Positions 3,974 through 34,240 of a stretch of 39,957 nucleotides of DNA are shown piece after piece. The number at the start of each line of letters is the position of its first letter. Positions within the stretch are counted from its first letter, which is position 1. The notes beneath the pieces were generated by a model. That model saw nothing but the letters and a program-made list of their open reading frames with translations, had not been told where the DNA came from and did not search any database. The stretch is from positions 1 to 39,957 of the forward strand of contig JAUMYU010000016.1 of assembly GCA_030528485.1 (NCBI GenBank). Direction: 5' to 3'. Origin of the DNA: Comamonadaceae bacterium (lineage in GTDB: Bacteria > Pseudomonadota > Gammaproteobacteria > Burkholderiales > Burkholderiaceae_C). The translations under genes were made by a program, and so were the position numbers.

Positions 3974-4050
3974 ATTACAAATCAAAGGAAATTTGAATCC
4001 TTGCTCAACATGCCATAATATGTAGATTTCTTTTCTTTTGAATTGTAATT
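3974..4050 (-). repeat. 80-bp palindromic element, copy 1
   Basis: The left arm ATTACAAATCAAAGGAAA pairs with the right arm ending TTTTGAATTGTAAT. The core reads ATGGCATG on the minus strand. The element begins at the base after the acyltransferase stop codon, in a convergent gap. It belongs to the ten-copy family described in the findings. Confidence 0.75.
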
Positions 4051-4063
4051 TTTGGGCATGAAA

Positions 4064-4088
4064 AAGCCGCACTGGTTCGGTGCGGCTT
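4064..4088 (-). terminator. hairpin terminator, convergent gap
   Basis: AAGCCGCAC (4064-4072) pairs perfectly with GTGCGGCTT (4080-4088) around a 7-nt loop. Read on the minus strand it is followed by TTTTTC, so it suits termination of the minus-strand gene ending at 4129. Confidence 0.7.
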
Positions 4089-4097
4089 GAGAGGGGG

Positions 4098-4134
4098 GAA
4101 AAGCCTGGGCCGATATGCCTGGGCTTTTTTATTT
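4098..4134. terminator. bidirectional intrinsic terminator
   Basis: AAAAGCCTGGGC pairs with GCCTGGGCTTTT through two G-U wobbles, with a CGATAT loop. A U-rich run (CTTTTTTATTTT) follows on the plus strand. It overlaps the stop codon of the minus-strand gene and can end transcription of the plus-strand acyltransferase. Confidence 0.65.
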
Positions 4135-4794
4135 TGCAGGCATGCAGGATTTGTAGAGGATGTTGTCGTCAGGCCCAGTCACCATGACGGCCAGCGAGCG
4201 GAAGTTGTCGCGCGTCATGGCCTCTGTGCTGATGCGGTAGCCTTGGCCTTTGAAGACAGTATCAACACTATCCGAATTATTCAAATCGTATTGAAGGGTA
4301 CGGCGCTTACCCTGAAGTTGGGCGGTGGCGCTGACAGGAATGCCGACGTTATTGAATTTGTAATCAATGTTCAAGCGGCCTTGCTGGCAGGAATATGCAA
4401 CCGAACTGGAGGAGGCCGCTGCTGTCGGTTTTTGCGCGCCTGCTTTGGAGGAAACCTGGCAATTTTTGAACAGGATTTCATCATTGGGGGAGGTAATGAT
4501 GATTTGCGAGCTGCGGTAATTTTTGGAGTTCATCTCGTTGGACGAAAGGCGATATCCGGTTTTGTTTTTAAAGACGGTATCCACATTGTCGGAATTTTGC
4601 AGATCGTATTGCAAAACCTGTTTGCTGCCCAAAATGCTGGCCTCTGCACTAACGGGAACGCCCATTTTGTTGAACTTGTAGTTCACGGTCACATGGCGCC
4701 CTTGATCGCAGGAATAGCTGACCGAATGGCCGGCCGCCACGGCGGAAAGGGATGCGCAAGCAAATGCGCCAGCGATGAGGTGTTTCATTTTCAT
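4129..4794 (-). CDS. secreted tandem adhesin-complex-protein-like protein (putative lysozyme inhibitor)
   Basis: A 221-residue exported protein with signal peptide MKMKHLIAGAFACASLSAVA. Two homologous domains of about 85 residues follow: residues 25-112 and 132-217, joined by an Ala/Ser-rich linker. Each has one early and one late cysteine (Cys29/Cys112 and Cys136/Cys217), shared YSC-QGR, YKFN--G-PVSA and YDL-NSD-VDTVF motifs, and an end of the form DDNILYKSC. From memory this pattern matches the Neisseria adhesin complex protein (ACP), an outer-membrane-associated inhibitor of vertebrate lysozyme that has a single domain. The tandem arrangement is unusual. A Shine-Dalgarno AAGGAG precedes the ATG. 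The gene is A+T-rich like the acyltransferase beside it. The fold assignment rests on remembered motifs and is not tested. Confidence 0.8.
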   Translation of the reverse strand: MKMKHLIAGAFACASLSAVAAGHSVSYSCDQGRHVTVNYKFNKMGVPVSAEASILGSKQVLQYDLQNSDNVDTVFKNKTGYRLSSNEMNSKNYRSSQIIITSPNDEILFKNCQVSSKAGAQKPTAAASSSSVAYSCQQGRLNIDYKFNNVGIPVSATAQLQGKRRTLQYDLNNSDSVDTVFKGQGYRISTEAMTRDNFRSLAVMVTGPDDNILYKSCMPAK

Positions 4795-4910
4795 ATTTCG
4801 ACTCCTTTGGTTGATAAAAAGAAAACTTTTTCAGATGATTGCCTGAGCTTTTGCAATTCTAGAGGGCTAGATGACGCTGTTGTGTAAACTCTGGTTTCTC
4901 GAGAGTTTTT

Positions 4911-5876
4911 TTATGTTTCGCAAGACTGCTCAAGAAACCGCTGCGCATCCAATGCGGCCATGCAGCCTGTGCCCGCGCTGGTAATGGCTTGGCGATAAAC
5001 ATGGTCTTGCACGTCGCCTGCGGCGAATACACCGGGCACGCTGGTTTGGGTAGCAAAACCGGCATGGCCACCCTGGGTGACGATATAGCCATTTTCCATA
5101 GCCAATTGGCCTTGGAAAATTCCTGTATTGGGGGAGTGACCAATGGCGATAAACGCGCCATGCACGGCGACGTCTTCCGTTGCGCCGCTTTCGACGTGCT
5201 TGATGCGCACGCCCGTGACGCCGCTGTCGTTGCCCAGCACTTCATCGAGCACATGCAGCAGCTTGAGTTCGATCTTGCCTTGCTGCACTTTTTCCATCAG
5301 CTTGTCGATCATGATGGGTTCGGCGCGGAATTTGTCGCGGCGGTGGATGAGGGTGACTTTGCGCGCAATGCCCGAGAGGTAAAGGGCTTCTTCCACGGCC
5401 GTGTTGCCGCCGCCGACGACGGCGACGTCCTGGTCGCGATAGAAAAAACCATCGCAAGTGGCGCAGGCGGAAATGCCGCGCCCCATGAAGGCGGTTTCCG
5501 ATGGCAAGCCCAGGTATTTCGCAGACGCGCCGGTGGCGATGATGAGGGTGTCTGCCGTGTAGGTTCCGCTGTCGCCTTTGAGGGTGAAGGGGCGTTGCGA
5601 GAGGTCCACTTGCTGGATGTGGTCGAAGACGATTTGGGTGTTGAAGCGCTGGGCATGCTTGAGAAAACGCTCCATCAGCTCCGGGCCTTGCACGCCCGCA
5701 AAGTCGGCGGGCCAGTTGTCCACTTCGGTCGTGGTGGTCAGTTGGCCGCCCTGGGCCATGCCGGTGATGAGAACGGGTTGCAGGTTGGCGCGAGCGGCAT
5801 AAACCGCAGCGGTGTAGCCCGCAGGGCCTGAACCCAGAATCAGAACTTTGGCGTGTAATGTGTTGGAAGTGCTCAT
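4911..5876 (-). CDS. trxB: thioredoxin reductase
   Basis: Cytoplasmic NADPH:thioredoxin oxidoreductase (FAD flavoprotein) of 321 residues. The FAD-binding dinucleotide motif GSGPAG lies near residue 15, the redox-active CATC is at 138-141, and the NADP-binding [10 protein letters not shown] follows near 160. The carboxyl end holds the FAD motif [15 protein letters not shown]. Length and motif spacing match the bacterial low-molecular-weight enzyme. The start ATG at 5876 has a G-rich Shine-Dalgarno. It is transcribed away from ftsK across a gap of 354 bp, and in Burkholderiales trxB and ftsK are commonly adjacent. A short hairpin lies just past the stop (4886-4908), but its U-run faces the other way. 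Confidence 0.97.
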
Positions 5877-32963: not shown

Positions 32964-33019
32964 AGCGTGTGATGCACTTTGCGCTCTCGCGGGGGAGTGG
33001 AAAGTGCATCACACGCTCT
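32962..33019. repeat. perfect 19-bp inverted repeat after ychF
   Basis: AGAGCGTGTGATGCACTTT (32962-32980) is repeated inverted at 33001-33019 without a mismatch, with a 20-base spacer. It overlaps the last two bases of the ychF stop. No U-tract follows. It does not share the arms of the 80-bp family and may be the remains of an insertion sequence end or a different small repeat. Confidence 0.8.
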
Positions 33020-33047
33020 GGCCAACTCCAGCCCCGCCCGTTGCAAT

Positions 33048-33082
33048 CCTTGCCGTCCAGCCTTCGGACGGCAAAGGTTTTT
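33048..33082 (+). terminator. intrinsic terminator of ychF
   Basis: TTGCCGTCC (33050-33058) pairs with GGACGGCAA (33066-33074) around a 7-nt loop. A short U-run at 33078-33082 follows and also forms the edge of repeat copy 9. Confidence 0.75.
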
Positions 33083-33159
33083 CATATCAAAAAGAAATAA
33101 AATTACCCAATTTCGGCTTGATGGTATTAAAGTCGAATATTTTTTGATTTGTAAATCTA
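33081..33159 (+). repeat. 80-bp palindromic element, copy 9
   Basis: Arms ATATCAAAAAGAAATAAAAT and ATTTTTTGATTTGTAAAT. The core is ACCCAATTTCGGCTTGATGG. Its right end overlaps the minus-strand stop codon of pgeF (33157-33159). Confidence 0.8.
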
Positions 33160-34158
33160 TTCCAGCCAAATGCAGGCGGCCATGCGGCCGGTGCGGCCCA
33201 GGCGGGCGCTGTCGCGGCGGTGCGAGAAAAACAACGCTTCCTGGCTGAAGGTGCACCAGGGCCTGGCGCCATCGTTGCCATACACCTGCGTGATGCCCAA
33301 CCGGGCCAGCCGCTGGCGCGCCAGGCCGGGCAGGTGGGCCAGCCAGAGCTGGGGGTGTTGCGGGCTGGGGCGCCACAGGGGGGTGTCGCCCAGGTCTGCG
33401 CTGCCCCAATCCTCGCTGCTCTGGGCCGTGGCGCGCTGGGTTGTGGCGCTCTGGGCGGGCGCATGCGCCGCAAAAGCCTGGCGCACCTCATCGCCCACTT
33501 CAAACGCCTGCGGGCCAATGCACGGGCCGAGCCAGACCTGGGTATGGCGGGCGATGGCGCGCTCGTCGGCGTCGGCGTCAGGGCGGTTGTGCGCTTGCAG
33601 CCAGCGGCGCACGGCCTGGGCGAAGGCGGCGAAGGTGTGCTCCAGTACGCCGCTGCCATCCTGCCCGGCCAGCCCGCGCCAGCCCGCATGGGTGGCGGCC
33701 ACGACAGGGGCCTGGCGGTGCGCCCACAAAACGGGCAGGCAGTCGGCCACGAGGATGGTGCAGACCTGGCCGGGGCTGGCCGTCCAGACCGCATCGGCCT
33801 GGGGCAGGGCGGCTGCGCTGGCGGGCGCGCCGCCTTCGAGCGCCCACACGTCGCAACCGTGGATTTGCTGGAGGTAATGCGGCTGGGGCGCAGGGCGAGG
33901 TTGTGCGTGGGCTGGCGCTGGCGCGTGGAGCTGGCCGATGACGGCGTGCAGCAAGTCGCGGTTGGCCTGGACGTGGCGCGGCTCATCCTGCACATGCTCG
34001 CCCAGATTCCAGCTATCGCAAGGCGCTGCGCTATAGCCGCCCTGGCGGGTGGTGAACAAAGCCCGCACGCCCGAAATGGCAGGCCAATCGGGCAGGAGCA
34101 CACAGGGCGCGCGGCCATCGGGCGCGGCCAGGGCGGGCAGGCGCAGCAGCGGTTGCAT
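33157..34158 (-). CDS. pgeF: peptidoglycan editing factor PgeF / multicopper polyphenol oxidase-fold protein
   Basis: A 333-residue protein of the YfiH/LACC1 family. Members cleave purine nucleosides in vitro, and PgeF prevents incorporation of L-Ser in place of L-Ala in muropeptides. Zinc-site residues are His100 (QQIHG), Cys140 (ADCLP) and His157 (THAGWRG). LGPCIG and the FFSHRRD-TGRMAA end are present. An insert rich in Ala, Thr and Gln (about 230-260) makes it longer than the usual 240-260 residues. The ATG at 34158 has no Shine-Dalgarno because repeat copy 10 ends only 2 bp upstream. The stop overlaps copy 9. Confidence 0.92.
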   Translation of the reverse strand: MQPLLRLPALAAPDGRAPCVLLPDWPAISGVRALFTTRQGGYSAAPCDSWNLGEHVQDEPRHVQANRDLLHAVIGQLHAPAPAHAQPRPAPQPHYLQQIHGCDVWALEGGAPASAAALPQADAVWTASPGQVCTILVADCLPVLWAHRQAPVVAATHAGWRGLAGQDGSGVLEHTFAAFAQAVRRWLQAHNRPDADADERAIARHTQVWLGPCIGPQAFEVGDEVRQAFAAHAPAQSATTQRATAQSSEDWGSADLGDTPLWRPSPQHPQLWLAHLPGLARQRLARLGITQVYGNDGARPWCTFSQEALFFSHRRDSARLGRTGRMAACIWLE

Positions 34159-34160
34159 TG

Positions 34161-34240
34161 TTTTATTTTATTTCAAAGGAAAAATTATTTTTTATCTATC
34201 ATGCCAAAACAAGGGTATTTTGTTTCCTTTGATATGTATT
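34161..34240 (-). repeat. 80-bp palindromic element, copy 10
   Basis: On the minus strand it reads ATATCAAAGGAAACAAAAT, then the core CCCTTGTTTTGGCATGAT, then the arm ATTTTTCCTTTGAAAT. The TCAAAGGAAA arms pair perfectly. It lies 7 bp past the stop of the sulfurtransferase gene and 2 bp before the pgeF start codon. Confidence 0.82.

What the first reader, a model, noticed from the sequence alone, without database searches (positions are those of the whole stretch)
3974..34240. Ten copies of an undescribed-looking 80-bp palindromic intergenic element
Aligned by eye, the gaps at 3974, 9295, 13861, 15321, 24992, 26420, 28203, 30744, 33081 and 34161 hold the same unit of 77-86 bp. A left arm like ATAAATCAAAGGAAA is followed by CAAAAT and a short CCC or GCC. 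The core TTTCGGCATGAT comes next, and the right arm is the reverse complement of the left (TTTCCTTTGATT). The core is asymmetric, so copies have a direction: 1, 5, 7 and 10 read on the minus strand, the others on plus. The element is strongly A+T-rich in a G+C-rich chromosome and none lies inside a gene. I know no named family with these arms. One copy per 4 kb would mean several hundred to a thousand in the genome.
Basis: seen in the sequence. Interest (0 to 1): 0.88.

Follow-up and report, generated by a model that had tools for sequence, protein, structure and literature searches.

The report
Widespread constrained intergenic DNA element
Two sibling bacterial species carry roughly 550 copies of a short AT-rich DNA element between their genes, mostly where genes end, and the pattern of change suggests that a DNA-binding protein still reads it rather than that it is dead transposon debris.

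Summary
In detail: all ten window copies are real, two as divergent variants. A 439,957-base sample holds 102 copies, about 548 (447-665) in the assembly; a sibling species is similar. Eight other genus members have 0-3; none was found outside the genus in samples of 299 family and 399 order genomes.

It is not decaying debris. All 82 mapped copies have a counterpart in the sibling. In 77 orthologous pairs, 27 conserved columns differ at 3.0%, 22 variable ones at 31.5%, noncoding flanks at about 9-21%.

It looks like a DNA-level protein-binding element: mirrored arms almost without covariation, no predicted fold, outer length 73-76 or, rarely, 84-85 bp, one helical turn more. It occupies 33 of 42 convergent, 49 of 148 codirectional, 10 of 46 divergent gaps.

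REP membership fails: no RAYT gene. A MITE-like origin remains possible. No named family matched; ISfinder was unavailable. The binding protein was not found; the fast variable columns are unexplained.

The parts
3972..4048 (-). copy 1, type I element
   Evidence: profile R1 53.3 bits (used in the model); orthologous copy in sibling G007
9297..9375 (+). copy 2, type I element
   Evidence: R1 60.3 bits (used in the model); orthologous copy in G007
13862..13939 (+). copy 3, type I element
   Evidence: R1 56.0 bits (used in the model); orthologous copy in G007
15322..15397 (+). copy 4, type I element
   Evidence: R1 55.0 bits (used in the model); orthologous copy in G007
24992..25069 (-). copy 5, type I element
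   Evidence: R1 60.8 bits (used in the model); orthologous copy in G007
26419..26503 (+). copy 6, type II: outer arm-to-arm length 85 bp, with an internal perfect hairpin
   Evidence: arm scan and fold of the interior, dG -26.7; R1 only 14.2 bits; not in the model; its left arm falls below the stricter arm threshold; orthologous sequence in G007
28203..28289 (-). copy 7, type II-like: internal terminator-like hairpin
   Evidence: R1 24.8 bits; not in the model; hairpin followed by T run; orthologous copy in G007
30745..30821 (+). copy 8, type I element
   Evidence: R1 60.6 bits (used in the model); orthologous copy in G007
33079..33156 (+). copy 9, type I element
   Evidence: R1 59.2 bits (used in the model); orthologous copy in G007
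34163..34238 (-). copy 10, type I element
   Evidence: R1 55.1 bits (used in the model); orthologous copy in G007

Best explanation
A family of protein-binding DNA elements. Two inverted copies of one site (consensus W4-TTACAAATCAAA, then GGAAA) stand a fixed number of helical turns apart, with a third conserved motif (TTTCGGCA) between them. The likely picture is that a DNA-binding protein occupies both arms on the same face of the helix and forms a bridged or wrapped complex, mostly just past the ends of genes and above all between convergent genes. There it would bound transcription units or handle the supercoiling that meets there. The family spread in the common ancestor of two sibling species, probably by some mobile mechanism, then stopped moving and has been kept by selection. 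Shown here: constraint, fixed positions, mirrored arms almost without covariation, length classes about one turn apart, location, restriction to the lineage among sampled genomes. Inferred: the protein, the complex and the job at gene ends.
For: Constraint: over 77 orthologous pairs, 27 columns with at least 90% consensus in G000 differ in 57 of 1904 comparisons (3.0%) and 22 columns under 60% in 494 of 1568 (31.5%), sums of the table; column information and substitution rate correlate at -0.93. Benchmarks: fourfold sites 8.5%, other intergenic 7.3%, second codon positions 1.3%; noncoding flanks about 9-16%, 17-21% in the first 15 bases. Within TTTCGGC the C at column 36 differs in 28 of 77 pairs while its neighbours differ in 0-5%. 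No movement seen since the split: 82 of 82 mapped G000 copies, and in the reverse direction 77 of 77 mapped G007 copies (largely the same pairs), have a counterpart. Protein-like reading: mirrored columns have matching frequencies (column 5 C/T 72:25 against column 73 in reverse complement 68:27; column 6 A/C 67:31 against column 72 62:33), while pairing is hardly above independence (1201 observed, 1178 expected in 102 copies; 79.7% against 79.8% in shuffles of 39 copies). Both outer edges carry about four positions that are 72-100% A or T with little preference between the two (92 copies). Helical phasing: with lengths of 40-140 bp allowed, outer lengths in G000 are 73-77 in 88, 78-82 in 1, 83-87 in 6, other in 2, of 97 arm pairs; G007 53, 2, 6, 3 of 64. 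Location: convergent 33 of 42, codirectional 49 of 148, divergent 10 of 46 gaps of at least 90 bp; median 31 bp from 3' ends, 120 bp from 5' ends; no orientation preference (++ 25, -- 26 of 99 classified).
Against: No binding protein was found: HU/IHF has 3 genes in G000 and G007 as in 6 of the 8 other genus members, and the single H-NS keeps its usual motif. Variable columns change faster (31.5%) than noncoding flanks, which simple neutrality at those columns does not explain. Intrinsic terminators are about as frequent with as without an element (convergent 35 of 66 against 8 of 18; codirectional 20 of 49 against 39 of 99), so no termination role shows. Preference for gene ends could just be where insertions do least harm. 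There is a slight excess of pairing at outer columns 5-7 (uncorrected p 0.034-0.053). The 85-bp class is small, most G007 members of it are orthologues of G000 members, and 90 of the 97 G000 arm pairs lie in copies that the fixed-length profile had found. Element spacing is no more regular than chance. Profile seeds came from a pattern search, which inflates apparent conservation among copies, though hardly the divergence of orthologues. Two of the counterparts counted as shared are weak (13.9 and 16.3 bits).
Confidence: 0.5

Rival explanations
1. Relic of a MITE: a non-autonomous transposon that burst in the ancestor and now decays without function.
For: Inverted terminal arms, A+T-rich, intergenic, hundreds of copies, patchy taxonomic spread; published MITEs are AT-rich and mostly intergenic (passages of PMC10969869). 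A mobile origin would explain 0-3 copies in the eight other genus members.
Against: Neutral decay should hit all columns alike; conserved columns changed ten times less than variable ones and about three to five times less than noncoding flanks. No insertion differs between siblings among mapped copies. No target-site duplication signal, although the first 15 bp of flank diverge 17-21% and could have erased it.
Confidence: 0.2
2. An RNA element: the transcript folds and acts in mRNA processing or termination (ERIC-like, NEMIS-like).
For: Median 31 bp from gene 3' ends; a minority (type II) hold strong hairpins, for example window 26419-26503 at -26.7 kcal/mol.
Against: RNAalifold finds no pairs in 39 copies; almost no arm covariation and no run of arm pairs among the 45 top-ranked column pairs; copies lie in either direction relative to transcription; lengths step by about one DNA turn.
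Confidence: 0.1
3. Clustered IHF-type sites, as in some Correia or BIME elements: the arms are IHF sites.
For: Both arms hold a strongly conserved ATCAA preceded by an A/T-rich stretch, as in the consensus WATCAANNNNTTR (recalled); an IHF-binding repeat, the 155-bp Correia element, is described in PMC2229807 (section 5, part 1).
Against: The TTR part is not met: those positions read AAA in 88-97% of copies in the left arm. Relatives with the same number of HU/IHF genes have only 0-3 copies.
Confidence: 0.12
4. A DNA-uptake or recombination signal that helps exchange of DNA within the group.
For: Segments carrying elements in G008 and G002 are 96-99% identical to G000 or G007, while most of the window's right half that matches those genomes is 66-92% alike, so DNA does move between them.
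Against: Elements occur every 4.3 kb, so any imported segment would often carry one; intergenic and far longer than known uptake words (recalled); it has not spread in the recipients.
Confidence: 0.05

Closest known systems
REP/BIME elements (GTAG and CGTC families)
   Same: High copy, mostly intergenic, mainly between convergent and codirectional genes near 3' ends (PMC3733652, passages)
   Different: 75-85 bp not 20-40 bp (abstract of PMC3733652), A+T-rich arms, no GTAG/CGTC tag in the consensus, no stem covariation, and no RAYT (PF01797) in G000 or G007
ERIC and Correia/NEMIS MITEs
   Same: Size class, inverted ends, intergenic, copy numbers in the hundreds in some genomes
   Different: No consensus RNA stem, no target duplication seen, no insertion difference between siblings, column-wise constraint on both arms and a core
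Caulobacter CIR repeats
   Same: About 110 bp, strictly intergenic, suspected protein-recognition motif
   Different: No conserved GANTC in the consensus; single unit, no two-arm RNA structure; different bacterial class
IHF-binding repeats (155-bp Correia; BIME-1/RIB, recalled)
   Same: ATCAA cores in A/T-rich surroundings
   Different: No TTR (consensus recalled); two inverted sites at fixed phase plus a TTTCGGCA core

Membership tests
REP/BIME | RAYT (Y1 transposase) in the genome | tested here: not met
   0 PF01797 matches in G000 (80.5% complete) and G007 (99%); present in 5 of 10 genus genomes
REP/BIME | 20-40 bp stem-loop tagged GTAG or CGTC | tested here: not met
   outer length 73-85 bp in nearly all arm pairs; consensus edges W4TTAC...GTAAW4
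MITE | terminal inverted repeats | tested here: met
   12-bp arms found as 97 inward pairs in G000, against 5 outward
MITE | target-site duplication | tested here: inconclusive
   best of 392 tests 0.287 against 0.241 expected; flanks have diverged
MITE | insertion presence/absence between close relatives | tested here: not met
   82 of 82 mapped G000 copies and 77 of 77 mapped G007 copies shared; 20 and 9 could not be mapped
MITE | autonomous element with the same ends | tested here: inconclusive
   no amplified arms in 8 relatives (26 matches with 1-2 mismatches, 7 in the reversed control); not searched across whole G000/G007
ERIC/NEMIS-type RNA element | stable conserved RNA stem | tested here: not met
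CIR | conserved GANTC | tested here: not met
   absent from the column consensus
IHF site | WATCAANNNNTTR (recalled consensus) | tested here: not met
   ATCAA met in both arms, TTR positions read AAA in the left arm
Rfam families | score over gathering cut-off | tested here: not met
   0 matches in the window; 3 matches with E 0.86-0.98, far below their cut-offs, at E up to 1
Intrinsic terminator | G+C-rich stem then T run | tested here: not met
   type I copies have no consensus stem; several type II copies do

The most novel reading that the evidence does not exclude
A lineage-specific chromosome-wide nucleoprotein system: one abundant, still unidentified DNA-binding protein assembles phased two-arm complexes at about 550 sites and marks most convergent gene ends, having been built by domesticating a burst of mobile elements after the genus diversified.
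Probability: 0.25. Interest if true: 0.87.

Novelty: new variant of a known kind. Interest (0 to 1): 0.62.

Why it matters
High-copy intergenic repeats are often taken for selfish or structural debris, and selection on them is hard to measure. Here two sibling genomes give many orthologous copies, so selection can be read column by column, and it points to a protein-binding role. With two inverted sites at helical phase and 33 of 42 convergent gaps occupied, it makes a concrete, testable case for how such repeats become chromosome architecture, and for which protein reads them.

Tried and rejected
RNA hairpin: rejected after RNAalifold, column covariation and pair counting. RAYT/REP: rejected. 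Extra HU/IHF paralogue or altered H-NS as reader: no sign. Element in place of a terminator: terminator frequency is about the same with and without it. Replication-strand bias: 45 against 52 of 97 copies, p 0.54. Regular spacing: CV 0.81 against null 0.65-0.89. Similar repeats in relatives: a depth search in 40-70 kb of each of seven other genus members found no counterpart (G009 was not in that search). Gene conversion between copies as the cause of variable columns: judged by eye unlikely, because transversion-type columns (6, 41, 50, 63, 70, 72) differ little between orthologues although polymorphic among copies; no formal test was made. Empty sites: G002 and G005 lack both copies that G000, G007 and G008 have downstream of a citrate-synthase-like gene (gene name judged by me from its translation), but the gap is too diverged to place an insertion point. 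Codon usage: genes upstream of elements score slightly higher (p 0.0096), weak and uncorrected. Literature: search listings; read PMC2229807 section 5 part 1 (outline, text), outline and abstract of PMC2817692, passages of PMC3733652 and PMC10969869. None of these showed this element; that is all that 'not in print' rests on.
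Full report
WHAT WAS CHECKED. Eight are standard copies (type I). Copies 6 and 7 are divergent (type II) with an internal hairpin. A degenerate 32-base pattern hit 95 places in the host genome against none for the reversed pattern. A sequence-only profile (R1) was built from 39 copies: 8 of the window, 31 of the pattern hits. An nhmmer version run over the window plus twenty 20-kb stretches found 102 copies at E up to 1e-3 in 439,957 bases, and 86 in 394,411 bases of the sibling genome G007. 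That scales to 548 (447-665) in the 2.36-Mb, 80.5% complete assembly and about 611 (488-754) in G007. Some sampled copies were also model seeds.

WHERE IT OCCURS. Within the genus (10 genomes), G000 and G007 saturate the search (150 candidates scored each); G008 has 3, G002 1 (weak, part of the model only), G009 1, and five have none at E up to 1e-4. Outside the genus nothing was found in samples of 299 family and 399 order genomes, which overlap and were searched with stricter filters and 15 or 11 candidates per genome. I looked at the flanks of two G008 loci and the G002 locus: their best matches in G000 or G007 are 96-99% identical, so these copies probably came in recently by recombination. 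The flanks of the single G009 copy had no match in G000 or G007. The host belongs to Burkholderiales by its YchF relatives; the genus could not be named.

NOT MOVING. Flanks of 82 of 102 G000 copies could be placed in the fetched G007 stretches; the other 20 were unmapped or split, partly because no G007 stretch was held for two of the twenty G000 stretches. 77 of the 82 paired automatically. The other five, and three in the reverse direction, showed a counterpart on looser search, at 13.9 to 60.2 bits. So no lineage-specific insertion was seen, between genomes whose aligned stretches are mostly 93-97% identical.

UNDER SELECTION. In the 77 automatic pairs, conserved columns differ in 57 of 1904 comparisons (3.0%) and variable ones in 494 of 1568 (31.5%). 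Fourfold sites differ at 8.5%, other intergenic DNA at 7.3%, and noncoding DNA beside the elements at about 9-16%, rising to 17-21% in the first 15 bases. Seed choice can inflate conservation among copies, but the G007 partners were not chosen for conservation: every mapped locus had one. The variable columns change faster than the flanks, and this is not explained; a protein that hinders repair, or an A+T-rich stretch that mutates faster, are guesses.

DNA-LEVEL READING. RNAalifold predicts no pairs. Counting the arm pairs gives 79.7% paired against 79.8% in shuffles of 39 copies; over 102 copies 1201 complementary cells against 1178 expected, with a slight excess only at three outer pairs. 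Yet the two arms have matching, mirrored base preferences. This is what two independent sites for one protein give, and not what a stem gives. Both edges carry about four positions that are 72-100% A or T. With 40-140 bp allowed, arm-to-arm length falls into 73-77 bp (88 of 97 in G000; 53 of 64 in G007) and 83-87 bp (6 and 6), with 1 and 2 in between and 2 and 3 elsewhere. Several of the longer copies hold a strong inner hairpin, others only a weak one. A step of about one helical turn suggests the arms must face the same side. Most G007 long copies are orthologues of G000 ones, and 90 of the 97 G000 pairs lie in copies first found by the fixed-length profile, so this rests on a small class.

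GENE CONTEXT. With a home-made gene finder (379 genes in 440 kb), no copy is covered across its middle by a called gene. Among gaps of at least 90 bp, 33 of 42 convergent, 49 of 148 codirectional and 10 of 46 divergent hold an element (Fisher p 1.6e-7 for convergent against codirectional). Orientation relative to genes is even. Terminators are no rarer where an element is present. Six doublets lie 81-119 bp apart, start to start.

MECHANISM. The best-supported reading is a phased, two-arm protein-binding element with a third motif in the middle, placed at transcription-unit ends, fixed since before the two species split and kept by selection. A job in bounding transcription units or absorbing supercoiling is an inference from location alone, and BIMEs are the functional analogue (abstract of PMC2817692: binding sites for several proteins, suggested roles in chromosome organization and termination). 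The protein is unknown: HU/IHF and H-NS show nothing special in the two species. The arms share ATCAA with the recalled IHF consensus but not its TTR part.

NOVELTY. It belongs to the broad kind of high-copy intergenic repeats. It fails REP (no RAYT, no tag) and RNA-stem families. MITE membership is mixed: inverted ends met, target duplication inconclusive, mobility between siblings not seen. It is best called a new variant of a known kind.

Noticed in passing
window 32962-33022: A second, unrelated repeat: a near-perfect inverted repeat of 58 bp after a stop codon, with 5 hits (itself included) in the G000 stretches and 14 in those of G007; whole-genome matches also in G002, G008 and G009.
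   Followed up: partly
window 9515-9814 and 10868-11167: Two 300-bp stretches 82% alike, in or beside neighbouring same-strand genes: a tandem gene duplication.
   Followed up: no
window 38395-39957: This end is 96% identical to G002 and G008 while most of the right half of the window that matches them is 66-92% alike: likely recent recombination between species.
   Followed up: no
L082, L084, L086: Segments in G008 and G002 that are 96-99% identical to G000 or G007 carry elements: probable recent imports.
   Followed up: partly
L149 around 6770-6920, 9720-9870, 18780-18930: G002 has a different repeat of about 150-200 bp with ends like GAGCCTGTTCAAAGTC.
   Followed up: no
L063, L065, L069, L078, L079: Six doublets of the element 81-119 bp apart start to start, five in the same direction and one opposed.
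   Followed up: no
window and L061-L080: Of 277 A+T-rich islands, 120 overlap an element, 40 lie in called genes and 117 are other noncoding stretches; G000 and G007 have 61.5 and 64.7 islands per 100 kb against 2.5-10 in six relatives of higher G+C.
   Followed up: partly
L061-L080 and window against G007: Fourfold sites holding A or T in G000 differ from G007 in 30%, those holding G or C in 6%: strong pull to G+C at silent sites.
   Followed up: no
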